This document shows positions 6,001 through 60,316 of a stretch of 64,000 bases of DNA, piece by piece (within the stretch, counting starts at the first letter, position 1; every line of letters starts with the position of its first letter). A program made the translations under genes and the position numbers. The stretch covers positions 10,830,501 to 10,894,500 of the forward strand of contig AP031352.1 of NCBI GenBank assembly GCA_037833965.1, in the 5' to 3' direction. This stretch comes from Marchantia polymorpha subsp. ruderalis (Eukaryota; Streptophyta; Marchantiopsida; Marchantiales; Marchantiaceae). The notes below the pieces were generated by a model that did not search any database, was not told where the DNA came from, and was given only the letters and a program-made list of their open reading frames with translations.

Positions 6001-6300
6001 GTTCGTTCGTTCGTTCGTGCATGCATGAGGACCACATTCCACTTCCTCTTCTCGGACCTACATCATCAGACCATGCAGCAGATTGGCACCTTCAGCTCGG
6101 GGGATCTACAGCACTTGAGATGATGATTAAAATGTTCGATAAGCTAATGTCTTTACAATTTCGCATTTCTTTCTTTACTTATGCTTCGCTTTCTACATGT
6201 GATGAAGATTACCCTTCTACTTCACAGGTCGAAGTGAAGTCATGGCATTACATTGTAGTATTTAGCATATTGCATACACTACTAAGTGTGATCTAGTGTG
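1..6300. other. Intergenic stretch, no recognisable gene
   Basis: I see no reading frame with a recognisable domain here on either strand. The longest open frames are about 130 codons and their translations look like random sequence, rich in Cys, His and Ser and without motifs. Base composition is moderate, clearly different from the AT-rich block that follows. Untranslated or intronic sequence of a gene lying further left cannot be excluded. The only simple structure noted is the GTTC microsatellite near 6.0 kb. Confidence 0.5.
6000..6018. repeat. (GTTC)n microsatellite
   Basis: About four and a half perfect copies of the tetranucleotide GTTC, followed directly by a GCATGCATG purine-pyrimidine alternation. 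Ordinary simple repeat; no function inferred. Confidence 0.85.
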
Positions 6301-9300
6301 TTAGATCAAATCTATACATATAGTTTATTCCATGATAATGAAATGATGAGTGCAAACCATATAAATATTTTTAACTTCCATTTCTTTGGATAGGAATCTT
6401 GAATATCTAACAAAACTTCCATTTCCTTGGATAGTAATCTTGGAAATCAGATTACACTCCATTTTTTGGGTAGGAATCTTGAATAACAAATTTTCTCTAT
6501 ATATCTGTTACACAATCTTTCAAGCTAAGTTTAAACTTCAAAATAACTTAAACTTCAAATCTTTAGCTACAATAAGCATATAACATACATAGAATCAAAA
6601 AAAATAATGATCCCAAAAATGTATTGATCATCTTATTATATCTTATATTTGTAAAAATATTACATATTTATAATTTTACCCTTATCAACTCATGAAATCA
6701 TTAGTTTCATTCTTTAAGCTCTTGCTTCAATCTATATGAGGATTTCAGCAAAATTGAATCATAGACTCTCGTGAGTTTTTCAAAACTCTTATAGTTATAA
6801 AAAAATCAATTCAACTATATAATCAAAGAAAAAAATTGATACTTATCTTTTTGATTTATGAATTATTGAAAATCACCGTAAAAATATTAAAACATTTAGA
6901 AAATAATAAATTGAACCCATTATAATACATTTTTTCTCTACTGTTTAGATATCTTGATCATCAATCCATCCTTGAATTTGATTTTAATTCTTAGGTGAAG
7001 TTGTTTTTCAACATGTTCCAGTGTCCACCACTTTGAAACTTTAATAATTTTTGAGTATTGTTATCAACCATGGAATTCATTTACTTACATCTCATTGCAA
7101 TTTATTCAAACTTGAGGTTCATTTTATAAAAGAATTAATTTTATTTTAAGATCAAAATCATATGAAAAATTTCTATTTTTAATTTAAGTTGAGACAGCTT
7201 ATTTTCCAAATTCAGAGTGTTATTTCAACTCAAAATATTTGCAGCTTTGTGATTGACACTATGATAAATCGTAACTTGAAATCAAATATCATGATACTTA
7301 ATAATTTTACTATTTAACTTATAATCACTAAGATTAATTTTGAATATATTGCAGTTAGTGCATAAGTAAATGATTTCAATGATTTATAACAACACTTAGA
7401 ATTTAAAGTTGAAAAACTAATCTGAGTGATAAGATTGAACCAAAACTTAAATCTAACAACCAAAAAGATATATTTTTCAACAAATCAAATTATCAATATA
7501 TCAATCCATAAAAAAAATTTGGTCAATACAACCAGATAATATTACATAATAAAATCAATCAAATGCTAACATGTAGTCAAATATTTTCATGATTAAGTAT
7601 TTAATGTTTAGTAAAATAAAACACGAAAATTTCCAATTACGAAATTTTTCAAGAATTATCATCATCTTATCAAATGTAGACTTAATAACTATTTTTTTAT
7701 TATAAATAAAAGAATTAAACTAAAATCTTTGATTACATCTATAACATATACATTCACAAGCTTATTTACAAGAAATCATTGACATTGAAGTTATTTGATT
7801 TGAGAGTTCTAAAAATCAGAATTCCACAACAATTAGATTTTTCTTTGATAAAAGATCAGTCATACCCATCAAATCCAATATGAGTTCTGATGTTTAAAAT
7901 ATGTTCAATTCGTGCAATGCACTCCATAATAATACTCATCATAGTCACAAGCACTTTTGCATATGCGATATTGTTGTGTTTGTGATGAAAGTCTAACTCC
8001 AACTTTAATTTTTCCTACTGCAATCATATCCACTCCGCTTGTGGCGGTGCCAAGGGACTGATTTTCAAACAATATTTTGGAAGTACTTTTGAATGTTCTT
8101 AAGAGGTCACATCAAATGCCGAATGAAGATATTATGTTAGAGTATGCTTGATTATGAATACTTAAATCAATTTTTTTGACATATCATAAACTTCAAAAGT
8201 TACATCATATATAAAATTGGATTTATTCAGTCAGAAAGTTGCAGCAGGTTCTTGACAAAAAGTTCACAAAGAGAGAATTTAAAAGATAAAATATATAGGT
8301 TGCAGCGGAGTTTGTTCTTCTGTTGACTCTGCGTCGAGCCGGCTCCATTTCTTGGCCTTCAGAAATTGACTCCAAGCTCCTCATAAGTTCACTCCCGAAA
8401 GTCTTCAATTTTTTTTCCCCTTAGCTCCATCTCAAGGTAGTTCCATATATGTACCTTTGAGAATTGACATGACGATGCAGCAAAGTAGTACATGTAATCT
8501 CATCTTTGTATCACCTCTAAAGAATTTCCAAGATGTGCTTAGAAGGTATCAAAATGATAACTAAAATTTATCTAAGCGAGGAACTATTAGCCTGAGAACA
8601 ACATCTTTGACAGAGACAATAATTTCCATTGGATCGAATATCGATTGCAAAAAAGTAGTCAGATTTTATCATTCGTCAATTGTAACTTTTTATGTTTATT
8701 TTCATCTGGACAAAAACTTGTGATTTGAAGAAGTATATTACAGTCTTGCTAGATTTTGAAGGATGGTCCAAGTAGTTAGCAGCCACGAGCCCTATGTTGC
8801 TAACTTCATGGACTGAAGCCCTTTAATGTGTCCATATAGCATACCATCATAAGAAAGAGATGATAATAATTGTAAGTAAAACAATTAGTTTTTCCAGTAT
8901 AGCAGTATTGTGTATAGTATCAACGAGGTGAAACAATAATTTCGTTTGTTGACTGTATATATGTGTCGGCTGTGTCATGCGTGTGATTATTTGCGTTAAG
9001 AATCTATGATTATTTTTTCTATAAGGTGAAGATGTCCCATATGTTTTGCCACAACACTATTTTTGAGGTTTTCAACTTTGTCACAATTTTAGCAAATCAC
9101 GGATCTGTCTCTTACTCTATAATTTAGAAAGGATTTTTCTTGTAAAACATTTGTTCCCTCGTAAAATCTTTCGCAGTTCACATCCTCCATTTTAAAACCA
9201 TCCATTAATGGTTTTAAAATTAAATTTATTTTTTAAGATGTTTGATGAATGCAAAAAAATATTAGATGTTAATCCAATATCAACAAGAAATTATTTTTGT

Positions 9301-12050
9301 CCATAAAAATTTTTTATGAATGATGTCCATGTACCACAATGAAGTAATCCAAAATTAATTAAACATTTATATTCTCATAACATAGTACAAGGATTCTACA
9401 AGGAAAATAATTTTTATCAAACGAATATTCATCAAGATTTTACAAATTCATAAAAAAGTCATTATATGTTTATATGAAAAAATACATGTCATATGAAAAA
9501 TAATAAAAAATCTGTATAATTCTATTATACCTAAGTATAAACAAAAAAACAAATTTTTTTGGACATATTTTTTCATTATTTTTTTAAAATATTTTTAATC
9601 TGATAAAACATATTTACTTTTGCTAAATGATAAGTTTAAGTCTTATTATTTGATATATTTATAATACACTAATTTTTCAATAAAAAACAAACCAAATAAG
9701 GAAGCAATAACGATGTACAAATCTATCAATTTTAGATTAAGCAAGATGAATAGTATTTTATGTGTAATGAAAAGATATATAGCAAATCTAATAACTTGCA
9801 CACCACATACATATGATAAAGACTAACATTTTTTTTAACAGAATATTGAGTTAATTTATAGCTTAGAATTATAAAATTCAAATGATCATGTGTTATATGC
9901 TTAATGAAATAACACCAAAAAAATTAAAAAATAACAATTTGAAACAAAATCTTCATGATATTATTTGTGTTAAATGTTTATTTAAAAAGTTGATTAACAT
10001 GTGTTGCATGCATAATAAATACTATTATGATTATATATAGTTAAGAAAGATAAATACTCAATCAAGTTCTAACTTACAAAATTTGGATCTGTTAAATATG
10101 TTAGGTGTCAATTTTTAATATCAATTATAAATAATAAAAAAGCGCATAAATTAATCATTGTTAAAAATCTTATTTATTAACAAAATCTCTTTACAATTTG
10201 ATACATTTTTTATGATATATTTTTATTTTGGATGAAATGAAGTTTGATAAATATATTTTGATAAAACTGATTTAAAAAACTTAATTCGATATGTTAGTTT
10301 TATCATGCAAACAATAAAAATAATAGTGTCAATTAAATGTTTGAAAAAACTATTTCAATGTGTGATTAATTTGGATTGAATTAGTCTTAAATTTCAAAAT
10401 TAAAAAAAATTTATTGTAGATTCATATGAATTGACATAAAAATACATAAATATTATATATAACATACAATTATATGACAGAAACTTATTGAAAATTAAAA
10501 ACCAATTTATTTTAAATTATTTTTATAATATAAATAATTTAACATTTAGGTTATATATATATGATTAAAATGAAAATTATTATTAATTATAATGATATAA
10601 ATTTTTATTGTGATAGTTAGAGTGTGTTACATCTTGTTATACATTAAGTTATAAATAGAAGAATGAACAACATACACATCATATATGTTATTTAAGATAA
10701 AAATATTGAACTAATAAAAATTAAGAAAAAATTGAATCTAGATGATGCATTCAAGTTTGATTCTTTGGATAGTTTTAGTAGCATGAGAAACAAAAATCAA
10801 GTTTATTACCAAATTTTGTTATTTCTATGTATTTTTGTGTTGTAAAGTTTTGACCACATACTAGATCTAGTTAGGTTTGTTATTAAAACTTTCTGTAAAA
10901 TATTTCTAAGGATTATCGAGATAACGTCCTCCACTATATGAATTAAGTATTTTTTTAATATTAATTCAAGTATGTTTTAACTCAATTAGCTTAACCCTAG
11001 TTAGTGTTTAGATTTTATTATTCACTACAAAGGAACACTTTAGATATATTATCAATAAAATCATTTTAAGCTCCCTTGTGTATGATTGTGTGTGCGTGAG
11101 CTTGTGTATTTGGTGTGATTTCATGAAAGTGTAAAACAAATATGAGTTAGATGTATATTTATTTGAGAATTTGTTGAATCAAGTTGTTTTTTAGTTATTT
11201 CATTTTTTATGCAAATTTTTTAAAAACTTCCATTAACATCAATCTATTTCAATGCTACAAGTTGTGAAGAAATGATGAGTAAATTTTTTCCCTTTGTGAT
11301 AACTTTAAAACTCGTATATGATAATTATTTTATATGAAATGAGTTGAATAGATATTGATTTAGCTTTTGATGATAAAAACTTGATATGTATGATATTCAC
11401 CATATATATCATCGCAATAAAAATATTTATATTCACCATAATAATGAATATATGGATTTTTTTGTTTGCTGGTCACTCCAAAATTGTTAAATTATGAAAA
11501 TCATAATTTTTTTAAATAATTAAATTTTATTAAATATAAAATCAAATTGACTCATGACACAAAGTGATGAATCTTTTTTCATCATTTAAAGAAATATTTA
11601 AAGAAATGTTACAAAGCCCATCTATAACACATGATTGCTTAATGCATAAATTCATGCTTGATACATACAAAATGAGATGAAATTATTTTTAATATTTTGA
11701 ATCATGTGAGATGATGAAATGTAAAAGTAAATGAATAAAAAATAATCCTATTTCTTTGATTTAAAAAAATTGGATTTTTTTTACTCAAATTGTCGGTTTT
11801 TCACAGTGAAATTAAATCTCCAATATTTTTTTATGATAAAATTTTTTTTATAGAAAAATTGGGATATTTTCATATTATTATTCAGTTTTGAATAAATAAA
11901 AATTTAATATATTCCATGAATAAAGAAATTTTCGTCAAATAATAATAATTTATTAATATTTCAATACATTACATGTTTAACTGCATATTGAAGATATATT
12001 TTTTAAAAAAAATTATAATTTTGAGACAAAATAAACGAGATGAAAAAGCT
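6301..12050. other. Very AT-rich gene-free block
   Basis: Nearly 6 kb dominated by A and T, with many short A and T runs and no open frame of note. No transposase, reverse transcriptase or integrase signature could be read in any frame. The change in composition is abrupt at both ends, especially at about 12,050 where the GC-richer MnmA locus begins. It probably represents degenerated transposon-derived or heterochromatic DNA, which is inference; the 41-bp tandem repeat inside it is listed separately. Confidence 0.6.
6374..6496. repeat. Three tandem copies of a 41-bp unit
   Basis: Three imperfect head-to-tail copies begin at 6374, 6415 and 6456. Each carries CTTCCATTT or CTCCATTTT, then TTGGATAGGAATCTTG or a close variant. 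The period is a constant 41 bp and divergence between copies is modest. It lies at the left edge of the AT-rich block. Confidence 0.8.
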
Positions 12051-25864: not shown

Positions 25865-26562
25865 GGGGAGAGGTAGTTGTCCCTCACTTGGGGCTAATTG
25901 GATCTCACCCTATTGTACGGACTTCACTCATTGGTTCACTCGGGTTGTAGTATCAGTGGGGTGAAAAATATAATTGTTAGTCCTTTCCAAACTGCCCTCA
26001 TACATACCGCTGTATTAGTTAATGTAAGTGAGGTGACTGAGGGCCCGTCAAAGGTCATATGTTTATGGTAAGACCAAAATCGCAGTGGCACTTAACAGCT
26101 AACCTTTCACTCTACAACATTCAAACTAGTGAGTTCTGCCATCCGAGCTTGTAAAATTACCCCAAGTAGCTTCCTTCTTTCGTGTGATAACTTCGTTGTA
26201 CTTCGTGCTGCTTTTGATCGAGCTACTGGTTCAGTCGACCAAGATGCTGGTTTCATAAAGTTGGCTGGCTTATACTCGAGTATCAATTATTGTTTGAGTC
26301 TCAGGCTGGGCACACATTGGAGGTGATTGATGTCTAATGAACTTGGGAGTCGATCGGGTTTCATGGAGGATGGCAATGTAGGGCATGTGAAACTATAAAA
26401 TGCTAGGTACAAATATGCTCTAGATTTTGGGAAAAGAAACAGTAGATTAGAAAGACGGGAAACTCGTGAAGTTTTTTTTTGTGCACTGCACAGACCCTAT
26501 AAGCTGAGTGAACCAATGAGTGACGTCCATATATTAGGGTGAGGGATAACAAGCCGCCACCC
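25865..26562. mobile_element. Foldback DNA element, GGGGAGAGG family, copy 2
   Basis: About 700 bp with long imperfect inverted ends. They include an 18-bp perfect match: TCACTCATTGGTTCACTC at 25924-25941 and its reverse complement at 26506-26523. The outer parts, GGGGAGAGGTAGTTGTCC and its counterpart ending at 26562, match the ends of the 16.4-kb element. TTTATTA occurs immediately outside both ends (25858-25864 and 26563-26569) and is a candidate target-site duplication. The interior holds only a 65-codon open frame without a domain, so the element is non-autonomous. The superfamily is undetermined. Confidence 0.7.
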
Positions 26563-26569
26563 TTTATTA

Positions 26570-28250
26570 GATGTTGTGTAGGCTACAAAATGCAAAAATA
26601 TTTTGAAATGCCTAAAGCAATAATTTACATGCATATTTGATATCCTTATCAATGTTATACACGATGTTTTTAAAGTATAAATCGGAAGATAATTTTATTA
26701 AAATTTTAGAAAATTGCAGTAAAGAAATATGATGCTCATTTAATAAAAAAAATAATGCAAAAACATATGTCTTGATTTAATTGCAGATGAAGTCAAAACT
26801 ACATGATGGTGATAATTTTCCAAGAATATGAAAAATTCAAATTTTACTTTCTAATTTTTTTAATAAATAAATAAATAGATATATAAAGATATATGTATAT
26901 ATAATATAAGTATGAAATAATAAAAATACACAAAATCAGTTGGAAACAAATCAGAGACTTGAAATCAGAAATTTCTTATTGAATTGAAACAAAATTAATT
27001 GACATCAATAAATTTGAACACATAAAATAATCTTAAATTAAATTTTAAAAGAGAATGATCTCTTTAATTTTCATGATCTATTTTTACGAATTTTTCTCAC
27101 ATAAAAAAATATTAATTTCAAAATTTGATGTAAATTTCAAAGCCTATCAAAATCAAAGTAAAAAATACGTATTAAAAAAATACCGAATTTTTGGTTTATC
27201 ACTTAAATTATAAATATATTTTAATGATAATTTTGATGGAATAGTTGTTGGAAAATTATTAAAAATCTATTTAAATTTGATAATATGTCATTGCAATTTG
27301 ATGTTGAAAATAAAATTATTTTGAAAAAATTCGTGTCACTGATTTTTAAACGAAGCTTGAGCAAAAAATGTTTAAAATTATTTTTAAAATATCAGAATAA
27401 TGTTTAAAAAAATTTAAGAATTAATTTTTAAATTTTAATTTGAATAGATTTCAATAATTAAAATTTAATATATTTTATCCTGTTTACAAAAAATCAATGA
27501 TTTATTTATTCTCAAAATATCTTTGCTAATTTTTTCTATATTTTTAAAACTTACCCTTGAATGTAAAACTCTCACTCTTTAATTGTATTTGAGCTCAATA
27601 TTAATATATATTTTCAATTATATAACATTAAAGTGAGGAAAAAAAGGCATATTACAGTAGTTTGAACAAGGTCTTACACATCCAACGTGAGTATGTAATG
27701 CCCAGTATTATGAATCGGAAAGCATTGACTTTTAAGATAAACCTAGTTTCAAAGTCACATGAAATAACGTTGACATTATAAATCATAATAACAGAAAGAA
27801 TTAATCGAATGTATAAATGCTTGCGTAGAGTTTTTTGTAATTTGAGAATGCATAGTTGATTCGTAAGTTAGTCTCGGTAGTGCAACTAGCGTAGTTTGCA
27901 TTCAGATCAACAAACACATTTTAGAGTAAAATGGCTCAATTGATATAGATTACACGAGTGTTACTTGTAGTGCACCCTTTGAACCCTTAAGAGTGTGGAT
28001 ATCGTGAATACTAGAAGAGCGAATCCTGGAGTTTTCATGATACAGCGGATATGGCTCGAGTTTAATTAATTTTTGTATGTGATGGTTATGACCGTACTAA
28101 ACCGTGCAAGTTTTACAAATAATAAATACGTATGGTGATACATTTGTGAAGTGCAAAGAAAATGCTACATATTTATAGATACCTAAGTAGATATGAAACG
28201 ACATGATGGAAGAGGTAAAGACATTGTAGACACATGAAACTCAATGGAAC
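26570..28250. other. AT-rich gene-free block
   Basis: Strongly AT-rich, with frequent A/T runs and no open frame or transposon signature. Composition becomes moderate again after about 27.65 kb. I see nothing else in it. Confidence 0.55.
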
Positions 28251-28711: not shown

Positions 28712-30667
28712 TCAGACGCCCTTCAACCGCTGAAAGATGGAGTGGCGCGGGTGCGCGAAGGATCGGCCGCGGGGCCGTTCCGTCGAGGCCTTGATGGTCT
28801 GGAAGAGCGACTCCATCATCAGCGCGCACGCGTGGCCACCGTCTCGGACGCACGAGCTCCCGTCGTCGCTCCCTTCGCCCGCTTCCTCTTCCTCGCTGGC
28901 CACGGGATCCTCGAACAGAACTCGCTTGCCCTTGGCCTTCGATTTCTTCTGCTCGGCGTCCGTTGTGCCCAGCACGGATTTCATCGCCTCTTGCAGCAGC
29001 AGTTCTTCTTCGATGAGGGTTCGTTTGGGCTGCTGCTGCTCCGGATCGCTCTCTTCTTCCTCTTGATCCCGAGCGGAACTGGATTCGGCCGCCGGTGACG
29101 CATCCGGCTGCTGCTGTTGTTGTTGTTGTTTCATGGCCGAGTCTCGTCTGGTTTTGGACGATTGTGTCTGCTGTGCTTGTGGAGCAGCTGGTTCTGCCGT
29201 TTGTATTGAGGTGTCCTCGGACACTTCCTTCTCGAGCAAACTTCTGCGATGCTCTGCGAACTTGCGCTTTTCACCTGCTTTTGCGGTCTTTGCGGATTTG
29301 ATCCTTGCCTCCACTTCCCGCTCGATCTCGGCGATGCAGTCCTCCAGTTTCTTCTGATTATTTTCCTCCAGTAGATTCCTCGTTGACTCTAATTTCTGAA
29401 CTGAATCGTTTTGTAGTGCTGCCATGGCCAGCGCTTCTCTTTCGGCAAAATCAGTTGTTATGGATTCCTTTTCTTTCTGTGCCTTTTCTCTCTCTTCCCT
29501 CTCAAGTCCACTGCAGGCCTCTCTTTCTCTTTGTTCTAGTTCTTGCATTTTTTCCGGTCTGTTACGCTCACTTTCTATTGTCTCCTTTCCTCGTTGTCTT
29601 ACTGCAAGCTGTCGTTCTTTTCTCTCTCGATTTATGGCTTCTATCCTAAAGTCGCACTCTTCTTCGATCTTTTGAGAGTCGTGAGCTACTTGAGCGTTGA
29701 CGAAAGCTTCCAAGCGCTGCTCTTCTTCCGCTGCCTCTTGTCGTACTCTGTTCCTGGCTTCTACCAACAAAGGCTTCAATTCTCTTTGTGATTTTTTCTC
29801 CAATTCTTGCATCAGCGCTTTGGCTTGGCTGGCATAGTCTGCTCGAATTTTGGACCTCACATCTTCTAGATCGCTTTTACTCTGGGCTTCTTTGGATTTC
29901 ATACGTTCATCGAGTTCGGATTTGAGCTTTTCTTTCAGCGGTTTCAATCGATACTCTTCCAACTCCTGCCTTATCGTTACCCTGAGAGCTTCCAAATGCT
30001 TCTCATGTTCTTTTTCTTTCTCGACTATCTCAGATGCAAGCTTTTCCTCCACCTTGTTCTTCACTTGTATTTTTTTTATATCTCTGATTTGCTCCAATCT
30101 TTCTGCCATCTCATCTCTGAGCTTCTTTATGCGTTCGTTTTGTTCTTGTGTTTCTAATGCCGGTAACCTTTGGAGAGCCGTGGGCTTCGAACCTTCGTCC
30201 GTGTCTGGTGGTTCTGCAAGTCGTCTGGATGTAGGGGTCGATGCCCGCCTCTTGGTCCGATCTACGGATTGATTATATTCATCGGTGCTGCTTGATGGTC
30301 CAGAAGCTAAGGCACTTTGCCTTCGCTTTGAATTATCTCTAGTCTTCTGAACCTTGGGCTTCTTCTTCGTCTTAGGTCTTGAACTAGTAGTGGCTGTTGT
30401 ATCCCGTGTTTCATAGTTGTAGGTAAAGCGCTCCTCTCCATTGAAATTGTATTTAGTTGATCCTTCTATTTCGGGAATTAAAGGTACTGTGGAGAGCAAA
30501 GAAGATCGTAATCGGAACCATCTCGCAATGCGTCCTCCACTCTTGGCAAGAATACTTTCGCTGGCAAGTGCAGTTGGGTCAATGCTCTTGTCTCCATGAA
30601 TATTGACTCTGACTGCCGGGTTTGCGGTCTCTTCATCATCGTGGCCTTGATCTCTACCAGATGGCAT
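28712..30667 (-). CDS. Long coiled-coil protein, function unknown
   Basis: Single open frame of 651 residues starting at an ATG. I do not recognise a named family. Residues 1-110 hold no obvious domain; 110-185 are basic and Ser/Thr-rich with a likely nuclear-type KKKPK cluster. From about 190 to 490 the protein is almost wholly Glu/Lys/Arg/Gln with heptad-like spacing, such as LEALRVTIRQELEEYRLKPL, which indicates a long coiled coil. A seven-Gln run lies at 514-520, followed by an acidic and Ser-rich stretch and a short hydrophobic-basic C-terminus. Such Glu/Arg-rich coiled coils occur in centrosomal or basal-body proteins of the CEP164 kind, but no WW domain is visible, so that is only a possibility. 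It is transcribed divergently from the PKA regulatory subunit gene, about 1.16 kb away. An additional upstream exon cannot be excluded. Confidence 0.75.
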   Translation of the reverse strand: MPSGRDQGHDDEETANPAVRVNIHGDKSIDPTALASESILAKSGGRIARWFRLRSSLLSTVPLIPEIEGSTKYNFNGEERFTYNYETRDTTATTSSRPKTKKKPKVQKTRDNSKRRQSALASGPSSSTDEYNQSVDRTKRRASTPTSRRLAEPPDTDEGSKPTALQRLPALETQEQNERIKKLRDEMAERLEQIRDIKKIQVKNKVEEKLASEIVEKEKEHEKHLEALRVTIRQELEEYRLKPLKEKLKSELDERMKSKEAQSKSDLEDVRSKIRADYASQAKALMQELEKKSQRELKPLLVEARNRVRQEAAEEEQRLEAFVNAQVAHDSQKIEEECDFRIEAINRERKERQLAVRQRGKETIESERNRPEKMQELEQREREACSGLEREEREKAQKEKESITTDFAEREALAMAALQNDSVQKLESTRNLLEENNQKKLEDCIAEIEREVEARIKSAKTAKAGEKRKFAEHRRSLLEKEVSEDTSIQTAEPAAPQAQQTQSSKTRRDSAMKQQQQQQQPDASPAAESSSARDQEEEESDPEQQQPKRTLIEEELLLQEAMKSVLGTTDAEQKKSKAKGKRVLFEDPVASEEEEAGEGSDDGSSCVRDGGHACALMMESLFQTIKASTERPRGRSFAHPRHSIFQRLKGV

Positions 30668-31828
30668 GATCGATTATTAACGCATCATCACTGGTCGCGA
30701 AAACCTGAAGGTCTGATACTGGTGTATTCTATCGAGACTTCCCCTGACTTGATCCTTCATCACTTTATAATGCTTAAGTATATATATGTTTCCCTCTATA
30801 ACGACTCGTCATTATGTGAATCGCCCTTTTCGTCGGAAGAGGCTGGTATGTTACTTTTGTGCTTTATCATTTCACTTCCATCTTCAGATCGGTTCTATGA
30901 CCAGATCACGCGGTACGTAAATTTCCACTTCACGAATTATAGGGAAACAACATACATACTGGTCTCTGTGCTAGCATTGCAAAGCATTGTGCAGAGAAAG
31001 TGGAAACTACACGAACGCATCAATTTTGCGAAATTTAAGTTTAATTATTTAAGATCTTTGCCGGAAGAATGAGTCAACTTGACTTTGCATTTCGCAATAA
31101 CAACCTAGCCATTTCTAGAGCACGTTAGTGAGACTGATTCGTCCCACCACTTTGTTAAGAACAGATCCCTATGCCAATGCTCGAGTTGAATTTACTACTT
31201 ACACGTACGAGGCAATTCCTCGATGGGTTCTCGTTCCAGGAAGTCTTTGGCGGAGATTTGTTTCTGGATAGATTAAGTTCTTTTCCACCCATGACTAGGA
31301 AACGATTCTCGGTCTTAATTTCATCTGATTAGCAAAGTATGTTTGTAAAGCGGGAGGATGGAAGTAGGCTGACACCAAGTCCAATAGTGCTGGTCCGCAT
31401 CACGTCCCCGAGCCTGTGCATGTCGTGCAATTTGTGCACGATTACTGTCAACCTTTGAAGTGATTTTCCACTTCCAGGCGATCACGGGTTTGTTGATGTC
31501 GGACCTTTTCAACCGTTTAGCTATAGCTGAACGGATCCGTCTAGATCTCTTTTGCTAGCATCTGTTTGGCGATTTATGTCCGATATCCTGATAAATCGGA
31601 TCCCGTTGAAGCCAAGAGGTTCGAATTCGGAAGGGGTGAGTCGTGTCTACGCTATATAGTTGTGCAAGTGGATTTCATTCTGGGGTTGCATGTAGATTGA
31701 ACCCTCTTTCTTCGTCAATTTATACCACATCCAAGAAACTGACAACGTAACAATCGAAGTTCGAGTGAGGTGGCTGTCAAATTTGCGTGAAGATTCTAGA
31801 TCTATTTTTTCAGAAAAGGGATCCAGCG
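30668..31828. promoter_or_regulatory. Divergent intergenic region between the coiled-coil and PKA-R genes
   Basis: The 1.16-kb space between two divergently oriented start codons must hold both promoters. TATA-like tracts occur near each side: TATATATA at about 30780, and CTATATAG at about 31653, some 175 bp before the PKA-R start codon. A pyrimidine run ending in CAG lies just before the PKA-R ATG (about 31813) and could be a splice acceptor for a 5' UTR intron. No shared operator or repeat was identified. Confidence 0.4.
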
Positions 31829-32965
31829 ATGGGGTCGTCTGGTGGCGGTCGTGACATCTCTATGGGTGTTGCGGATATGAAATTGAAGGCGAAAGCCAAG
31901 AGTCTTGCAGGTGGTCCTATAGACAAAAACATTCAAATAATCAGACAGAGAGATAGGAGCAAGACTATGTCAATTCGTCGGACAGGTGTGAGTGCAGAAG
32001 TTTTCACCGGCGACGAGAAGTTTGAGAAGAAAATAGTCGAGAAGAGTGAAGAAGCCAAAAAGCGGATTCGTGCCTGTTTTTTGAAGAGCTATCTGCTTGA
32101 ACATCTTGATAAGGAGCAAACGGAGACGGTGGTCGAAGCGGTTGAAGAGGTACGATTCAAAGAAAACGACATTATTATCCAGCAAGGAGAACCAGGAGAA
32201 TACTTTTACCTTCTAGAGCAAGGAGCCGCCGAAGTGTGGATAACGAAGGAGGGAGAGACAAAACCCATAATGGTGAAGCAGTATACTGCCGGAGACAGTT
32301 TTGGAGAGCTCGCTCTTTTGTACAATGCACCAAGGGCCGCTACTGTAAAGGCGACCACGGATTGTGTGCTGTGGGCAGTGGATAGAAATACGTTCCGTGC
32401 CATTTTGATGACCTCAACACAGGAGAAGAGAAATTTATATGAAGAATTCTTGAAGGAAGTTCCTCTTCTCAAATCCCTGGACAAGTACGAGAGATCAGCC
32501 ATTGCCGATGTTTTACAGCCGGAATACTTCAATCCTCAACAAGTAATAATCGTCGAAGGTGCAAAAGGCGACAAATTTTTCGTGCTCGAGGAAGGGGAAG
32601 CCGAGGCTCGATCACAGGGCAAGGTTGTCATGAAATATAAGCGAGGAGACTACTTTGGGGAGCTTGCACTGCTCAATGATGCCCCTCGTGCCGCTACAAT
32701 TACCGCACTGACGAAATGCAAAGTTGTGTCCATAGAACGGGAACAATTCAAGAGGCTGCTGGGAAAACTCGAAGACATCCTTCACCGTAAGAAAGAAGAC
32801 TACGAGAAAGTGAATGCAGCCGTGGCTGTTTCTCCAGAGGATGCACCCGCACAGCTTCCTGACTTGCCGCCGGGGGCAGCACCTTCAGCACCTTCAGCCT
32901 CAGTCTCGGAGACCTCCACTGTACCTTCTTCGCCCACCAGTGAATCTGGACCTAGTGGCACTTAA
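31829..32965 (+). CDS. cAMP-dependent protein kinase regulatory subunit (type I-like pseudosubstrate, no visible dimerisation domain)
   Basis: Predicted 378-residue cAMP sensor that would inhibit a PKA catalytic subunit until cAMP binds. The inhibitor sequence IRRTGVSAEV has RRTG at 50-53, with Gly at the phospho-acceptor position, making it a pseudosubstrate as in animal RI subunits. Two tandem cyclic-nucleotide-binding domains follow. Their phosphate-binding cassettes are FGELALLYNAPRAATV (158-173; Glu160, Arg169) and FGELALLNDAPRAAT (276-290; Glu278, Arg287). The Arg that contacts the cyclic phosphate and the PRAAT alanines favour cAMP over cGMP. The N-terminus is only about 49 residues, and no RIIalpha-type docking/dimerisation helix pair is visible. 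A Pro/Ser-rich tail of about 50 residues follows domain B. The first ATG is used; the frame is open further 5' without another ATG. PKA-R genes are absent from seed plants and are known from lineages with motile sperm. Confidence 0.93.
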   Translation: MGSSGGGRDISMGVADMKLKAKAKSLAGGPIDKNIQIIRQRDRSKTMSIRRTGVSAEVFTGDEKFEKKIVEKSEEAKKRIRACFLKSYLLEHLDKEQTETVVEAVEEVRFKENDIIIQQGEPGEYFYLLEQGAAEVWITKEGETKPIMVKQYTAGDSFGELALLYNAPRAATVKATTDCVLWAVDRNTFRAILMTSTQEKRNLYEEFLKEVPLLKSLDKYERSAIADVLQPEYFNPQQVIIVEGAKGDKFFVLEEGEAEARSQGKVVMKYKRGDYFGELALLNDAPRAATITALTKCKVVSIEREQFKRLLGKLEDILHRKKEDYEKVNAAVAVSPEDAPAQLPDLPPGAAPSAPSASVSETSTVPSSPTSESGPSGT

Positions 32966-33620
32966 CTTTGTCATTCTCAGGCGATGACAAATACATGTAT
33001 GTGCCATGACTTTGGATCGAGCCTCTATACGATAAGGTACAGTAGGCTGAATGCCAGGATCCATCAACATGTGGTTCGTATTGCTTCTCAGTTGCAGTTT
33101 GTAGGGAAAATTTGACCTCGAGACCTGGAGGTAGAAATAGAGAACGAAGAGATGTAAATTGGTCTTAAGGAAAGTAAACACTGTCGCCGAGACAAACACT
33201 GAATGATAAGTTGCTTCCCTGAATCAGACGTCTGTCTCCCTGTTTCCGCACTCAAGGTTAAACTATTTGTAGGAGTTAGGGAGGTGAGAAAGATAGATCT
33301 TGTAGCTAAGCTTAGCAACGTGAACCGTGTTCTACTTTACAGTTGAAGTTCTCAACTCGGTCCAACGCGAGTAAGAAACCTCCGTGTCGTGTATGGATGC
33401 CCGAACTCAATGAATGTCGAAATATTCTAGATCCATGATACGTCCCGTCGCCAAAAGCTTTGTTGTATGGTCCATGGGAATGAATGAACTGGAGTCTAAT
33501 CTACGCTCCTTTAGGTCCCGCTTGCGAAGTGCATGGGAGGAAAGGAGAGACAGAAGGATTTGAATGATAGAGACTTTACTTTTTATAATAGGATATGATT
33601 TTTCCCACTTTAAAATCAAA
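32966..33620. other. Intergenic between PKA-R and tRNA-Ala
   Basis: Should contain the 3' untranslated region of the PKA-R gene. No further gene, repeat or structured element was recognised. Confidence 0.5.
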
Positions 33621-33693
33621 GGGGATGTAGCTCAGATGGTAGAGCGCTCGCTTAGCATGCGAGAGGCACGGGGATCGATACCCCGCATCTCCA
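33621..33693 (+). tRNA. tRNA-Ala (anticodon AGC)
   Basis: A 73-nt cloverleaf. The acceptor GGGGATG pairs with CATCTCC, includes the G3-U70 wobble that is the alanine identity element, and is followed by discriminator A. The anticodon loop is CTTAGCATG on a five-pair stem, reading AGC (decoding GCU, and GCC by inosine). The T stem CGGGG/CCCCG closes an ATCGATA loop, in which A replaces the usual T54; plant nuclear tRNA-Ala genes commonly show this. No intron. CCA is not encoded. The gene ends 272 bp before the GCST start codon on the same strand. Confidence 0.98.
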
Positions 33694-33704
33694 GCAGATA
33701 ACGC

Positions 33705-33710: not shown

Positions 33711-33965
33711 CTATTGCGGGTTTACATTTTTGGCCGCGTCCGAGGCTGATGGGCATGAATGAGGGACGGGAATGGGTCGAATGGTGGTGGGTTAGAGGAT
33801 AATGTGCGGGGAAGGGTAGTTCTTGTGGTGGTGCTGCGCCTCTGGCTCGTTGCTCGCATAGTACATCTGGGAAGCAGCAGCATCGGCATTGTGTCGAGCT
33901 GCAGATTAGAAGAACGGAAGGGAAGGGAGGCGAGCGGAGAGGCGCGACGAGAAGAGGGGGCCAGC

Positions 33966-35192
33966 ATGATGAGGCGGGCGACATGTCAATGGGCGGCGTC
34001 GGCGAAGCAGCTCGCCGAGCGCGCCGTGGCGCCCCAGCTCCAACGCCGCGGGTATGCCGATCAGTCGACATTGAAGAAGACGGTCCTGTATGACTTCCAC
34101 GTCGAGAATGGGGGCAAAATGGTGCCCTTCGCGGGCTGGAGCATGCCCATCCAGTACAAGGACAGCATTATGGACTCCACCACCAATTGCCGAAGCCACG
34201 GGAGCCTTTTCGATGTGTCTCACATGTGCGGATTGAGCCTCAAGGGCAAGGATGCCATTCCCTTCCTGGAGTCGCTGGTCGTGGCGGACATCGCCTCGCT
34301 GCCCAATGGCACCGGAACTCTGTCGGTCTTCACCAATGACAAGGGCGGAGTGATCGACGACACTGTCATCACCAAGGTCACGGACGAGCACATCTACATG
34401 GTCGTCAATGCCGGATGCCGTGATAAGGATTTGGAGCACATGGAGAACCACCTCAAGCCTTTCCAGCAGAAGGGCAAGGACGTCGGATGGCACATTCACG
34501 ACGAGCGCTCTTTGCTGGCCATCCAGGGGCCCCTGGCTGCCCCCACTCTGCAGAAGCTCACCAATGCCGATGTCAGCCAAATCTACTTCGCCGACTTCAA
34601 ATTCCTCGATGTCAATGGCGCCGCGTGCTACGTCACCAGGACCGGATACACGGGCGAAGACGGTTTCGAGATCTCCGTCCCCCACGAGAACGCTGTGGAT
34701 CTGACCAAAGCCTTCCTGGAGAAGAGCGATGGCCAAATCCGGATGACTGGACTGGGAGCCAGGGATAGTTTGAGATTAGAGGCCGGTCTCTGCTTGTACG
34801 GGAACGACCTCGAGCAGCACATTACGCCCATCGAGGCCGGTCTGGCCTGGACCATCGGAAAGAGAAGACGAGCTGAGGCCAATTTCCCCGGAGCTCAGGT
34901 TATCCTCCAACAGCTGAAGGATGGGCCGACGAAGCGCAGGGTGGGTCTTTCTGCAGGCGGAGCTCCAGCGAGGAGCCACGCCGAGATCTTGGATGCCAGT
35001 GGTAAGGTCATCGGAGAGGTCACCAGCGGAGGGTACAGTCCGTGTTTGAAGAAGAACATTGCAATGGGTTATGTCGAGACCGGAAACCATAAGGCTGGCA
35101 CACCCATTCAGGTCGTCGTGAGGGGCAGGACGAGCGCCGGTGCCATCACCAAAATGCCTTTCGTGCCCACCACATACTACAAGAAACCTTGA
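33966..35192 (+). CDS. GCST: Aminomethyltransferase, T-protein of the mitochondrial glycine cleavage system
   Basis: Transfers the methylene carbon from the aminomethyl-lipoyl H-protein to tetrahydrofolate and releases ammonia; in plants it acts in mitochondria during photorespiration. The product is 408 residues, the usual plant length. Residues 1-31 are Arg/Ala/Gln-rich without acidic residues, fitting a mitochondrial presequence. Conserved blocks: [13 protein letters not shown] (52-64), FDVSHM (82-87), [10 protein letters not shown] (124-133) with the catalytic Asp, [11 protein letters not shown] (225-235), [16 protein letters not shown] (264-279) and [10 protein letters not shown] (352-361). 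The frame is open 69 codons further 5' to another ATG at 33759; I prefer 33966 because the presequence and length then match the family, but leaky use of the upstream ATG is possible. The coding region is uninterrupted, whereas seed-plant GCST genes have several introns. Confidence 0.95.
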
Positions 35193-53400: not shown

Positions 53401-56400
53401 AAGTATTAATTGTTGTATATTAAAATATATAGTTGGTTAAAAACGAAAGCCACACCTCAATTTCAAAATATTCATGTTGAAGATAATTCTCCCTGTATTT
53501 TCCAAAAGCCGCATTCATGACGATTATTCTACCTACTGTACGCCGGGGATGGCGGAAATAGTACTGTACATATGATAAGAAAAAAAAGTTCACCTTTTGC
53601 AACATAGGACAGTCACTCTCACGTATCCATGTGGACCCACGTCCTTTTTTCACTCTTTTACACTTGTTGACAAATAAGTTTTCGTTTATAGTTCCATTCA
53701 TCTCCAAGAGTAGAGAGGGTCGTTGATTGCATACTGAGTATTCTACATCAAGAGACGAGATCCAATGATGAGTGACAGCTGTTTTACAGGTTAGTGTGTT
53801 TCTGCTTCTAGAAGGTTTGAGAATTTCTTCCGGCTTCGGCAGGAAGGAAATACGGAACTCGAGAGTCCTATTGACGTATTTCGTTTTCAGAATGTACCGT
53901 ATTTAAAAATAAAAATTATTTGTTATCTAGGTGGGTTCACTAGAGAAACTAATGGAGTCAGTCTGCTATAATTTTTCGTTCACCATTTGTGACAAATTCT
54001 TTGTTGATCTAGTTGGTTTTATTAAAGAAAGTAACGGATTCATTCAACTAAAACTTTGTGGTGACATTTGATGAGTTCAATAGTATTCTAATAGAACTCA
54101 ATAACTTTTAGTTTTGAAAACAAGAGAATTTATTCAACTAGTTCTAAAATATTAAGAACCTTTCAAATTTTCTTGGGAACAAAAGTACATGGATTAATAA
54201 TGAAATAACACAAATAGATTTTGGTTTTTGTGAAACTAGAACATTACTATGTCGATGTACTCGGTTCACAAAAATCTGTTGATTGATCAGTTTGATTCCA
54301 AGTATTAAGAATAGATTTCTTCAACTCATGCAGTTTTTCCGAGGATTATTTTGACCAATTTCGAACGCTGCAACACTGTGGAGAGTGATTTCTCAGTGCT
54401 GAAATGGAAAAAGATTTTTCAGAGATCAAACATAACACCCATCTCTCTCTCGAAGATATATTACATTGCTGTCAAATTAGACTAAAAACGGGTGAGGTAT
54501 GGATAAAGTTTTGAAGCCCAATGCAGGATTCTTATCTTCATCACAATTGGATTCTAACATTTGCACCAAAGCCATCAATTTTATCACATGTTCAAATAAA
54601 ACACTATACTTATCAAAATAAGCTTCTTTCCATCTCCATCTTTTTTGTCTCTTCATGAAGAAACTACATCGTTGATATACAATCAATCTTATTTTCATCT
54701 TGATCATATTCTTGATGTTCATAAGCTCATATAAATATAACCGAACACTTGGTAGAGTAAAAGTTTAGAAGAAAATCTTATATTAGAAATAGGATTTTTT
54801 TTAATGTTGAATGGTGTGTATTCAACATAAAAAATTTACTGGTTTTACATTAGTAACACAAAAGTTTTTGCAAAGTTTGAAAAATATATGTATATTGCAA
54901 CTAATGAAACACTCATGCACATCTATTGACATTTCCAATATACATCTTGCAAGATATGAGCATCTTATTAATTTTTTAATCTGAAAATCTAGAATTATAT
55001 GCATTTGTTTGATTAAGATATAGAAAAATTAAAAGTTTGGCTTAAGTTATATCATTGTAAGAATATAGGTTACATGACAAAAGATGTAGCAAAAACATTG
55101 CAGCTATATCAAACAGATTTCAAATATCTATTCATCAATCATTTTTTAGTACATAAATGTCTCAACCTGAAGATAATCATGCGAAAGAAAGAGTTTTGGA
55201 TGTCAATCTTTTTTGGTTTATTTAAAAAAAATTGAATAAGAAAGATCTAAAGAACATAAATGGCATTCTTGTTTCCAATATATACCATCATTTTTTTTTA
55301 TATAAGGGTGAAAAAGTTTTACTTCAATTGTAAAATCATCATATATGTAGAAGCTTATTGACAATCTTTAAAGCTTATGATCTTAAAAAACAAATATCCT
55401 TACAAAGCCATGCTAATTTTCAAGTAATTTGTGTTTATCTTTGCATGCAAAATGTTTTTAACAAAATATTACATCTTGCTAACTATGTGTAACCATCTTT
55501 AGTTGGTAAAAATTTAAATAGAAGTTATTTAAAATGAAGATATTGTTACATTATCGTGAATTATCCATATTTGTCACGTCAATAATCTGTATGCTTGTTA
55601 GGTTTATACGTCATGTCATTAATCCACTAGCAATAGAATGTATTATGGGAATGAAATCTTATCTCATTGTGGATTATATATAGTTTTCACTTTAATAATC
55701 AATGGGCTTGTTAGGGTTATACGTCATGTTATTAATCCACTAGGACTAGAATGGATGGCGGGGGTGAAGTTTTATATCCTTATTCTTACATTGTAAAATA
55801 TACGCAAGTGATAATTCTAGTTATGTTTCATCTTCAAAATTATATTTTATCTTTGAATGAACTACTACTTTAATTCATAGTATTACATTTTGTAAATTCA
55901 AAGTAAGTAACTAAATATCAAATAATTAATCACATAAACTATCAATATATAAAGTTGTGAATGATTTAGATTTTTACATTTAAAACAAATAAGTTTAAAT
56001 TTGACAAACAAAGCTTTGTTAACATCTTCAAAGTCACAAATAATAATCTTAAGAAGAAAAATTGTCAAACGTATAAATTTTGTTTCTCATGTATAGAGTA
56101 AATATAAAAAAAATATAAAAAAATTTTCAAATGAAATATTATAAAAATAGATAATAAAATTTTCAAAAATTATGAGCATAAAACTAAATATTTTTCATGT
56201 AATTATTTGAAAATAAGATTTCAAAATCATTTTGAAATGAAGTTCATGGATGGTTTATTCAATAATACTTATTATAACGAATTTTTTCAATGAGTAAAAA
56301 ATTTAATCAAAATAATGAAGAAATAAATAAGTATTAAATAAAATTTTTTACAATTAAAAAAATTCAAAGGAAAACCTGTTAAAAGCTAAAGTTTTTATAC

Positions 56401-59400
56401 AATTAAAATGTAACAGATATAAATCAAGTAGTTGTAGAGTAGATTTTCAAATTAATAATATAAGTTTTCATTTATTGCTCTGGTAATGATTTTTTTAGAA
56501 GTAAAAAGTAAAAATTAAAGAACAAAAATATCTTGGTTTTACATTTTCAATTGTAATTCTAATTGTAAATCTATAATACGGCATGGACCAAATTATTAAA
56601 TTTACTTATGCAGAATATCTCACTTTTACTGGAGGGAGCATATATACATTTAAAATTTCCTTCGAAGTTGTACCAATTCAATGTTACTTTGAATTCATAT
56701 GAATGTAAATATCAGTTATAACACAACATGATCCATGTAAAAAGTTCATCACAAAAATTTTGCACTAGAAAAGAGTAAAGCAGAACATAAAGTTAAGTAG
56801 CCTAAATCGAGCTAAAGTTCTAGAATTTGGACTTTCACGAAATTTTCTTTGTATACAGTGTTTGGCTTGGCTTATGTCTTCTAGAAAATTACAGAAGAAC
56901 ATCCGTGTAGATGTTACTCGTCACAATTTCTACTATATTCTGGTTTTATTTTCCGCTGACAACTATGTAACCTGTATAAGCTTTGGTTGCATTCGGTCTC
57001 ACAGAGTATCCACATTACTGACTAATCTTGTGTCGATGGATATTCCTTGTGTTCTGACAACCTATTAACGTATTTTCACCAAAAAGTTCTCATTACGTAG
57101 CAAATCAACATTTCCCCTTTTATATTTACAGAAATTTTACGACCCTACCTCTTTCTTACTATCACAAGTAACCGATATATTATTTGTCTTTCCCATCTTC
57201 TCTCCAGAATTACGCTCAAGAATTAGTAAAGAGTATGAAGTATGTAAACAAGCTTATGCTTTCACCAACCCGTTTACAAATCGTAGGGTTCGGATTTGTT
57301 ATCATATATCGTACAAGGTTAAAAGATTTATTTTCTGTCAAGTATGAGAGATGGAATTATCCTTCATCATCTGTGAACGTATCCATGACACTTTTCTAAA
57401 GCTTGAAAAAAGGATGTGAAAATTTGTGAGATGCTAATATTAAAATTTGCTGGAAACTCCTTGAGATAGAATTGCATGTGTTGTTTGTTTGGGTTGAAGA
57501 CACACTAAGACAATATTAGATCCATTTTTTTATAACGAGCTTACTTAGTTAAGGTTGTTTTCGTGTTTCGATTCTGTATTTGTTATGTGGTAAGTTACAC
57601 CATTGTCGGATATATGACAAAAAGGAGGAAATACTTCAACTCCAGGTGCAGATATATTACCCAAAAGTCTATAAGTGACTTACACGACTAGACCTTGAAA
57701 CTATGCTCTGTAATTCAAGTTTGAAATGATAACAAAGCCAACAAATGGCACAAAAGATGGAAGGCTTGAAGTAATCTCCCACATCCACGAAGTTTCGTGC
57801 CAATATCCACTGCAAATTTGATGATATTACGGAAGCTTGATTTGTTTAATCATGTCAAAGAGGTGAGATCTAACTCATGTAAAGGTTCTAATCAGCTATA
57901 TACCCACTGCTTGGGGTGATTAATTTTCTTTTTGTCTCGTTTGATTTGCTGTACAGTTCTTCATTAGACAGGACTTTTCCATATCACACATTTAGATTGA
58001 ACAACGCGCATGCTTGGAACATAAACATAAGTCTTGTTGCTTCTGGCTCCGTAAACTTTTATTTTCTTGCAACTTTTGGTAGCAATATTAGTGATTTCTC
58101 TAATGTTGTTGCATATGGAGTAATCTTATCATCTCTCAACAACACTCTCTCTCATTGTCACCAACACGCTTCATTTGATTGTCCTGAAAATTGAAGTGTA
58201 GTTTTCTTCATTCAAAAAAGTGAAAATTTTCTTAAATTTGTAAAACTCGATGTATGTGATATGTGAAACTTCATTATTTTTTTAGATTGAAAAGAGATTT
58301 TATTTTCCCTAAAGTTGTTTTGTATAGGTTGCTGTGTCTTATGAAAGTCCAACTGGCCTAGATCAACGGTAACTTACATGGCTGTGTGGGAATCTCCATG
58401 ATTATTCAAGGTTTATTGAAATAAACCATTTTATATGATGAAATTTTCCCAACAAAAACCTCTTATATTTTTGATCTCACAATCCCAAATGCTTTCATAT
58501 ATACGTACAAAGAGATCATATTTTCAAAATGTTGACAACAATATCAAATTTGTTAATAATATGAAATTATTACACATCTTTCAACCAGATACTTTATTTA
58601 TTTGTGAACCTTAGATATAGATAGCTCCAATGCTAGTACTACTTATAAATATCATGGTATTGCATAGAAAAAGTTCATACAGTTTCGATATGCAGTTCAT
58701 ATGCTTCTATTGATGAGTGAAAGTGAAAAAAATTAATCATAATATCTGTATGCAAGACTTTTTTCCATGTTAATTGGTTGACCATCGAAAAATATATTAT
58801 TTACACAAGATTTGAAGAGATCTTTTGATAAAAATTAAATTCATTGATTATTTCTGAAAGTTCAAAGCATGGGAGTTTGTTTATGTGCTCTAGATTTCAT
58901 AAAAAAACAACTGAATGTGATCAGCAGATGTAACGTATGACTAGGTGGAGATGTAATGCAAAATCCAGTAACGAGAGTTTGAGTTGCTACATTTAAATGC
59001 AATCTTGGTATCTCAGTTTTTTGTGTTCGGTATGATTGCATTGTTGAAAAAAAAGTTACATTGCAAAGATTTGATATCTTTTTAATTGCTATAAGTACGT
59101 GTAAGATAAAAGCTAATTTTTTTATGAGAAATTAATTACACTATTTATGATTAGCGGGAAAGCGTCATTTTTGCCATGTAAATGCAAACTTGAAGCTTGA
59201 TTTATTACAATAAAATTACAAATGTTTCTGTTAGAGTTCATCATTTGATAATAACTACTGATCTTTCAATAATGTTTCCCTCCATAGGCATTTTTTAAAC
59301 TTTACATTTGTTAGATCACAAAAAAAAGTCTTTTCAAAATTTACAAAGCTGCAAAGTAGAATTAAATCAAAAAAATAACATAACATTTTTGCTTAAATTT

Positions 59401-60316
59401 TTTCTTAATATGAAATAAAACACAAAAGATAGATATCAAAAAATAGAATATTTACAAAATTGTATATTTTTAATTTTTTGAATTAAATTTAGCAAGTAAA
59501 TAATATCAAAATCAAATGATGACAAAATTTTTTGTATTTTATAAATATAATAGGAAACATATAATTTTTGCAAAGCAAATGTTTATATGTGATGAAATCA
59601 AAATATCTTGTGAAATAAATATGAATGATAAGTTTTAGAAATATTTATTTTCTTTAAAATGTAAAAGTATCATGGCATATATCACTATGAGCATAAGGAA
59701 TTTTAATAAATTCTCCAATCAATACACAATAATTAGATTCTATAAAATGTATGAATTATAAAAATGATAAATAAAATATTTCATGCATGTCAACTCAAAA
59801 ATATTTGTAATATGACTAAGTAATAAAACTTCTTTTATTTGATATGACATATCAAAACAAACCTAATTTCTAAATTAAATCTTTACTTCTTTGATAATAT
59901 GCTTAGATAATGAACTGCAATTATAGGATGATATTCAGAGTTTAGTTATTCTTAATCACACATCAATTATTCGAAAAAAAAATGGTAATGATATATATTG
60001 GTGAAATTGTTTTTAATTGGGATGTTATGATTTGGAAATAATGGTCCAAAATAGTTAGTAATGAATTTTTTCTTGTCTCAATTGACTAAATATACCTAAA
60101 GCAAGAAAATCTTCGATGTGATAAAAAACGTAATTTTCGTTTGAGATAATTTTGAAATCATTGATTTATAAGATGTATTGATAAGAATTTCTTGATATGA
60201 AGGAGTTGAATGTCTGATCTCAATGTTTTCTTCACACCAAATAGGGTGATCAAGTAGTTTTACAATAAAAGAAAATTTTCATGTTTAAAGAATTATGTTA
60301 TTTTTTAAAATGTGAA
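53401..60316. other. AT-rich gene-free block
   Basis: Seven kilobases, mostly very AT-rich, with a less AT-rich island at about 56.8-58.4 kb holding short open frames of 68-92 codons and no domain. No transposon enzyme motif was seen in any frame. The direct duplication near 55.6 kb is listed separately. Confidence 0.55.
55581..55777. repeat. Direct duplication, two ~84-bp copies offset by 113 bp
   Basis: AATAATC...GCTTGTTAGG, then TTATACGTCATGT, ATTAATCCACTAG and TAGAATG, occurs at 55581-55664 and again at 55694-55777. The copies differ at several positions. The roughly 30-bp spacer may be part of the repeated unit, giving a 113-bp period with one and three-quarter copies. Confidence 0.75.

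What the first reader, a model, noticed from the sequence alone, without database searches (positions are those of the whole stretch)
31829..32965. Plant PKA regulatory subunit without a visible docking/dimerisation domain
The pseudosubstrate RRTG and both cAMP-binding cassettes, each with Glu and Arg, are intact. However, only about 49 residues precede the inhibitor site and none resembles the RIIalpha-type dimerisation helices that anchor PKA to AKAPs. That predicts a monomeric, unanchored cAMP switch. Seed plants lack PKA-R altogether, so an intact copy in a land plant bears on how cAMP signalling was retained, plausibly for motile sperm.
Basis: partly seen in the sequence, partly recalled or inferred. 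Interest (0 to 1): 0.75.

Follow-up and report, generated by a model that had tools for sequence, protein, structure and literature searches.

The report
Plant cAMP-kinase brake, ancient retrocopy
This is an intact gene for the cAMP-binding brake of protein kinase A in a land plant, probably a liverwort; it looks like an old intron-free copy of a sister gene, both copies lack the usual pairing-and-anchoring domain, and such genes are already reported to act in liverwort sperm swimming.

Summary
Window 31829-32965 (+) is an intact 378-residue frame: 49 residues, a type-I-like inhibitor site (RRTGVS), two cyclic-nucleotide domains with their Glu/Arg pairs, and no RIIa docking/dimerisation (D/D) domain. 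The same genome holds a sister gene on contig C9 that I modelled with nine coding exons; the window copy has none of its eight introns, yet homology runs from start Met to the last residues (261 of 348 aligned residues identical, synonymous sites saturated). The window gene is best read as an ancient, selectively kept retrocopy. The sister starts at the same Met and also lacks a D/D, so the lack is probably inherited rather than a missed exon. 'Monomeric' is a fair inference; 'unanchored' does not follow: Leishmania PKAR3 lacks a D/D yet sits on microtubules. PKA-R acting in Marchantia sperm is already published (cited in PMC13190419; primary paper not held), and D/D-less R subunits recur in eukaryotes. 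My searches found no report of the retrocopy origin, nor of the PKA-C gene's tandem exon pair, predicted mutually exclusive, at the recalled R-contact surface. Species not established.

The parts
31829..32965 (+). Intronless coding sequence of a PKA regulatory subunit (378 aa plus stop)
   Evidence: Pfam; PDB relatives; sister-gene comparison
31829..31975 (+). N-terminal segment, residues 1-49, no D/D; shares MxSSxGRDIxxGxADxKLKxKAKS-like sequence with the C9 sister
   Evidence: 24 of 40 aligned codons (residues 1-44) identical; D/D profile -0.1 bits; no amphipathic helix beyond shuffles
31976..31993 (+). Inhibitor site RRTGVS (Gly at the phosphate-acceptor position, so pseudosubstrate, type-I-like)
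   Evidence: alignment to RI-alpha; the P-site assignment follows that alignment and recalled RI/RII knowledge
32150..32413 (+). Cyclic-nucleotide-binding domain A (Pfam stretch, residues 108-195)
   Evidence: C3:10862650-10862913
32300..32344 (+). Phosphate-binding cassette A, FGELALLYNAPRAAT (E160, R169)
32522..32761 (+). Cyclic-nucleotide-binding domain B
   Evidence: C3:10863022-10863261, 73.6 bits
32654..32698 (+). Phosphate-binding cassette B, FGELALLNDAPRAAT (E278, R287)
32819..32962 (+). Ser/Pro-rich C-terminal tail, residues 331-378, longer than in the C9 sister
   Evidence: alignment (22 aligned codons, 12 identical)
31804..31813 (+). Splice-acceptor-like tract (attttttcag) just upstream of the start; the frame stays open upstream to the TGA at 31766
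   Evidence: sequence; 20 open codons; use not tested, no RNA data

Best explanation
The window holds a functional PKA regulatory subunit gene that arose long ago by retroposition of the mRNA of an intron-bearing PKA-R gene (now on contig C9). The protein should inhibit the PKA catalytic subunit by placing RRTG in its active site as a pseudosubstrate (Gly at the acceptor position, so no autophosphorylation needed) and let it go when two cAMP molecules fill the two domains. With no D/D in either copy it most likely works as an R:C heterodimer rather than an R2C2 tetramer, and any localisation would have to come from the short N-terminus, the catalytic subunit or the upstream enzymes. Shown: the anatomy, the lack of D/D in both copies, loss of the modelled introns, purifying selection, and PKA-C, RSP3 and class-I PDE candidate genes in the same genome. 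Inferred: cAMP binding, inhibition, monomeric state, sperm role.
For: Intact frame and domains. Sister gene C9:21956169-21961416 (+): nine coding exons, eight introns all phase 0, none present in the window copy; homology from Met1 to the terminal GPSG; pS 0.787 against pN 0.154. DNA similarity is confined to coding exons. A whole-genome protein search gave 9 matches: the window gene, seven stretches in the C9 gene, one in a C2 gene that also has kinase exons, i.e. PKG-like. Both copies lack RIIa. PKA-C candidate on C4 with LGTGSFGRV, YRDLK, PENLLLDN, GTPDYLAPEII and FDDY stretches. RSP3 on C7 (4 stretches, 3 over cut-off), class-I PDE on C8 (2 stretches). Land-plant markers: ARF_AD at four loci, SAM_LFY at one. 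Literature: MpPKAR as a regulator of sperm motility (passages of PMC13190419).
Against: No RNA, binding or oligomer data. Exon borders of the sister were placed by hand with the window protein as guide, one donor is GC, others are weak. Synonymous sites are saturated, so no dN/dS ratio and no date can be given. No poly-A remnant or target-site duplication was sought. The adenylyl-cyclase domain expected of CAPE was not found with PF00211 (0 matches) and the stretch where it should lie could not be fetched. The AlphaFold model from a single sequence was useless (mean pLDDT 34.8). The N-terminus is less conserved than the rest (pN 0.267).
Confidence: 0.8

Rival explanations
1. A D/D-encoding exon lies upstream and is spliced onto the acceptor-like site at 31813, so that the true protein is a normal dimeric, anchorable R subunit.
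For: A pyrimidine tract with CAG lies just before the start and the frame is open for 20 codons upstream in the window and 65 in the sister.
Against: The sister's homology starts at the same Met. Among 2724 stop-to-stop segments of at least 20 residues from both strands of the whole window and of 23 kb of C9, the best D/D score is 8.1 bits, on the wrong strand, and the best C9 score 5.3 bits, against 18.6-66.3 for left-out true ones. PF02197 gave 0 matches genome-wide, but nothing rang in that tool's controls either; the related 42-position Dpy-30 family was found three times, so short D/D-like exons are detectable. A D/D split into pieces under 20 residues would escape.
Confidence: 0.05
2. 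The short N-terminus is itself a new dimerisation or anchoring device, so the subunit is neither monomeric nor free.
For: 24 of 40 aligned residues are identical across a gap with saturated synonymous sites. Leishmania PKAR3 shows that an R subunit without D/D can be anchored through its N-terminus (passages of PMC11006142).
Against: No amphipathic helix beyond shuffles (0.667 and 0.912 of region shuffles reach the observed moment); no Pfam match there; it is the less conserved part of the protein; only two sequences were compared. Gly2 of the window copy is Ala2 in the sister, so a shared myristoyl anchor is not supported.
Confidence: 0.25
3. The intronless form is ancestral and the C9 gene gained eight introns; or the window gene lost introns without retroposition.
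For: No poly-A tail or target-site duplication was shown; the only direct evidence is the intron difference.
Against: Eight independent gains or losses, as against one retroposition event; introns of the sister are all phase 0 and missing cleanly.
Confidence: 0.07
4. Pseudogene or contaminant.
For: Intronless copies are often dead.
Against: Intact 378 codons, all inhibitor and cassette residues kept, pN far below pS; lies in a 32.6-Mb contig of a genome with land-plant markers.
Confidence: 0.01

Closest known systems
MpPKAR of Marchantia polymorpha (Yamamoto et al. 2024, PNAS, doi 10.1073/pnas.2322211121; not held; cited in PMC13190419 passages)
   Same: PKA-R of a liverwort-type plant; from recall the abstract reports two PKA-R genes acting with CAPE in sperm motility, which fits the two genes found here.
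   Different: The species of this window is not established and I could not match gene identifiers; whether that paper notes the missing D/D or the intron difference is unknown to me.
D/D-less R subunits: trypanosomatid PKAR1 and PKAR3 (passages of PMC11006142 and PMC6027212); Dictyostelium PkaR, a monomer from recall only
   Same: No canonical D/D; R:C heterodimer expected; PMC11006142 states that such subunits appear several times in eukaryotic evolution.
   Different: The trypanosomatid proteins carry LRR or long N-termini, and PMC6027212 calls their cyclic-nucleotide domains degenerate; here the N-terminus is short and both cassettes are canonical.
Animal RI-alpha/RI-beta
   Same: Pseudosubstrate inhibitor site, tandem domains, E/R cassettes; RI-alpha entries rank next after 5kbf in the solved structures.
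   Different: No D/D; Tyr220 where RI-alpha has Trp in the aligned LDKWER stretch.
Plasmodium PKA-R (5kbf; organism recalled)
   Same: Closest solved sequence (E 5.1e-71) and the same Tyr in the aligned PYER stretch.
   Different: Only the aligned core was seen; its N-terminus was not compared.

Membership tests
PKA regulatory subunit (broad family) | Two tandem cyclic-nucleotide-binding domains | tested here: met
PKA regulatory subunit (broad family) | Inhibitor site with paired Arg before the domains | tested here: met
   RRTGVS at 50-55
PKA regulatory subunit (broad family) | Glu and Arg in each phosphate-binding cassette, with PRAAT (cAMP-type, recalled) | tested here: met
   E160/R169, E278/R287
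PKA regulatory subunit (broad family) | No kinase domain in the same gene (against PKG) | tested here: met
   Only cNMP_binding over its cut-off in the whole frame; downstream ORF is GCV_T
PKA regulatory subunit (broad family) | cAMP binding and cAMP-released inhibition of a C subunit | not testable with these tools
   Needs protein
Canonical dimeric RI/RII subunit (animals, fungi) | N-terminal RIIa-type D/D domain | tested here: not met
Canonical dimeric RI/RII subunit (animals, fungi) | Homodimer | not testable with these tools
   Single-sequence model uninformative
Retrocopy (processed gene) | Lacks the introns of a homologous parent gene | tested here: met
   8 of 8 modelled introns absent; sister borders placed by hand
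Retrocopy (processed gene) | Poly-A remnant and target-site duplication | not tested
   Not sought; age makes retention unlikely
Retrocopy kept by selection | Nonsynonymous change far below synonymous | tested here: met
   pN 0.154, pS 0.787 over 348 codons; ratio not computable because of saturation

The most novel reading that the evidence does not exclude
Flagellate plant sperm run PKA without classical anchoring: two D/D-less R subunits, one an ancient retrogene, act as R:C heterodimers, and tuning comes instead from the catalytic side, where a tandem pair of mutually exclusive exons swaps the R-contact segment (Tyr in one, His in the other) to give C isoforms with different hold on R.
Probability: 0.2. 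Interest if true: 0.65.

Novelty: new member of a known kind. Interest (0 to 1): 0.4.

Why it matters
Kinase anchoring through a D/D and AKAPs is taken as the core of PKA control of animal sperm. If a land plant keeps a working cAMP-PKA module for swimming sperm with two R subunits that both lack the D/D, anchoring in that form is not required for cAMP control of a flagellum. A pair of R genes, one with and one without introns, can be separated by knock-out, and the two predicted C exons give a direct test of tuning by splicing. What is published (PKA-R acts in Marchantia sperm; D/D-less R subunits exist elsewhere) lowers the surprise.

Tried and rejected
Upstream D/D exon: searched with a nine-sequence profile over the whole window and 23 kb of C9, both strands; nothing. 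Genome-wide RIIa by Pfam: 0 matches, but uninformative because no control rang; Dpy-30 as a sensitivity check gave 3 matches. Amphipathic helix in the N-terminus: not beyond shuffles. Shared myristoylation: Gly2 is not shared. DUO1-like promoter motif (recalled RRCSGTT): one palindromic site at -318 in the window gene and one site at -245 in the sister, within chance at 0.344 per kb in the window. The bacterial promoter and terminator scan has no bearing. First kinase candidates were set aside on recalled family features: L057 S6K-like, L058/L060/L061 plant AGC kinases, L059 PDK1-like, L009 PKG-like; the C4 candidate came from the second search. No phylogeny was made: no other plant sequences are held. 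A single-sequence AlphaFold model was useless, so no fold search was run. Species naming: 241,466,482 bases in nine contigs fits Marchantia by recall only.

Full report
Observation. The frame at 31829-32965 (+) encodes 378 residues without interruption. Pfam finds two cNMP_binding stretches and no RIIa up to E 1. RRTGVS begins at residue 50 and both FGELALL..APRAAT cassettes are complete. The closest solved sequence is 5kbf (E 5.1e-71), followed by RI-alpha entries; the 11 best rows start at query residue 49 or 50. In the alignment to RI-alpha, RRTGV falls on RRGAI, so Gly occupies the acceptor position: a pseudosubstrate of the RI sort (alignment; the RI/RII rule is recalled).

A sister gene and the retrocopy. 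Searching the whole genome with the protein gives nine matches: this gene, seven stretches of one gene on C9 and one stretch on C2 (the tool warns that counts are lower bounds). The C2 gene has cyclic-nucleotide and kinase exons on one strand and is PKG-like. The C9 gene was modelled by hand, using the window protein as guide: nine coding exons at C9:21956169-21961416, eight introns of 98 to 1101 bases, all phase 0, seven with GT donors and one with GC; protein 348 aa. Of 348 aligned codons 261 are identical in protein; pS is 0.787, beyond a reliable correction, and pN 0.154. By region the identical residues are 24 of 40 (residues 1-44), 24 of 36 (45-80), 103 of 135 (81-215), 98 of 115 (216-330) and 12 of 22 (tail). 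DNA similarity between 30601-33700 and the C9 stretch is confined to coding exons. One retroposition event explains this best; the copy is old and selectively maintained.

Is the D/D really absent? A retrocopy can be truncated at its 5' end, so the window alone could not settle it. The sister settles most of it: its homology begins at the same Met (MASSSGRDI against MGSSGGGRDI). An in-frame stop lies 20 open codons upstream in the window and 65 in the sister, leaving a small space for a spliced upstream exon; an acceptor-like tattttttcag sits at 31813. The D/D profile found nothing convincing in 2724 segments of the window and C9: best 8.1 bits, E 0.11 at a nominal 1000 sequences and so about 0.3 for 2724, on the minus strand; left-out known D/Ds score 18.6-66.3 (the set holds close pairs, so only the BCY1 value is a strict test). 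Genome-wide RIIa gave 0 matches without a working control, Dpy-30 three.

The module. A C4 gene carries PKA-C-type stretches of 56-69% identity to human C-alpha in the second search and, with relaxed settings, LGTGSFGRV through FDDY in order on one strand. RSP3, which PMC4901443 describes as an AKAP in Chlamydomonas flagella that holds D/D-only proteins RSP7 and RSP11 (passages), is encoded on C7. A class-I PDE lies on C8, followed by frames that look like a long linker and membrane spans to my eye, as CAPE has by recall; the cyclase domain was not found and the next stretch could not be fetched. ARF_AD at four loci and one SAM_LFY support a land plant; nine contigs and 241 Mb fit Marchantia by recall.

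Mechanism. Shown: anatomy, absence of D/D in both copies, introns absent from the window copy, purifying selection. Inferred: each R blocks one C by its pseudosubstrate, cAMP frees it, and the complex is a heterodimer. 'Unanchored' is a step too far: PMC11006142 (passages) reports PKAR3 without D/D on microtubules.

Known or new. PMC13190419 (passages) names MpPKAR as a regulator of sperm motility citing Yamamoto 2024, which is not held; from recall its abstract speaks of two PKA-R genes. PMC8115329 (abstract) ties CAPE to motile sperm. PMC11006142 says D/D-less R subunits appear several times, citing Peng 2015 (reference list only). [quoted passage not shown] Against this, PMC6143667 (passage) writes that all R subunits share the D/D architecture, in a mammalian context. 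Searches for PKA regulatory subunit, PKA-R, MpPKAR, retrogene or PKA catalytic subunit together with Marchantia listed no report of a retrocopied PKA-R; this covers only the open-licence library.

Side finding. The C4 PKA-C gene has two adjacent 67-base exons (C4:15889980-15889914 and 15889854-15889788, minus strand), 45 of 67 bases identical, 59 bases apart. Either alone keeps the frame; both or neither bring a stop. They encode the stretch around C-alpha Tyr247 (recalled as an R contact): Tyr in one, His in the other. No transcript evidence was available.

Noticed in passing
L074 (C4:15885001-15895000, minus strand): C4:15889980-15889914 and 15889854-15889788: Tandem pair of 67-base exons in the PKA-C candidate gene, 45 of 67 bases identical, 59-base intron between; one or the other keeps the frame, both or neither give a stop; Tyr247-equivalent is Tyr in one and His in the other.
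   Followed up: partly
28712-30667 (-): A 651-residue glutamate- and lysine-rich, coiled-coil-looking frame starts about 1.2 kb upstream of the PKA-R start on the other strand, head to head; no Pfam match up to E 0.1.
   Followed up: partly
33759-35192 (+): The next gene downstream is also a single long frame: aminomethyltransferase (GCV_T and GCV_T_C), so two neighbouring genes look intronless.
   Followed up: no
33621-33693 (+): tRNA-Ala (AGC) between the PKA-R and GCV_T genes, the only tRNA in the window.
   Followed up: no
6001-12000, 26001-28000, 54001-60000: AT-rich islands (G+C 0.20 to 0.29) in a window otherwise mostly at 0.34-0.63.
   Followed up: no
L009 (C2:1569000-1578900, minus strand): PKG-like gene with cyclic-nucleotide and kinase exons on one strand.
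   Followed up: partly
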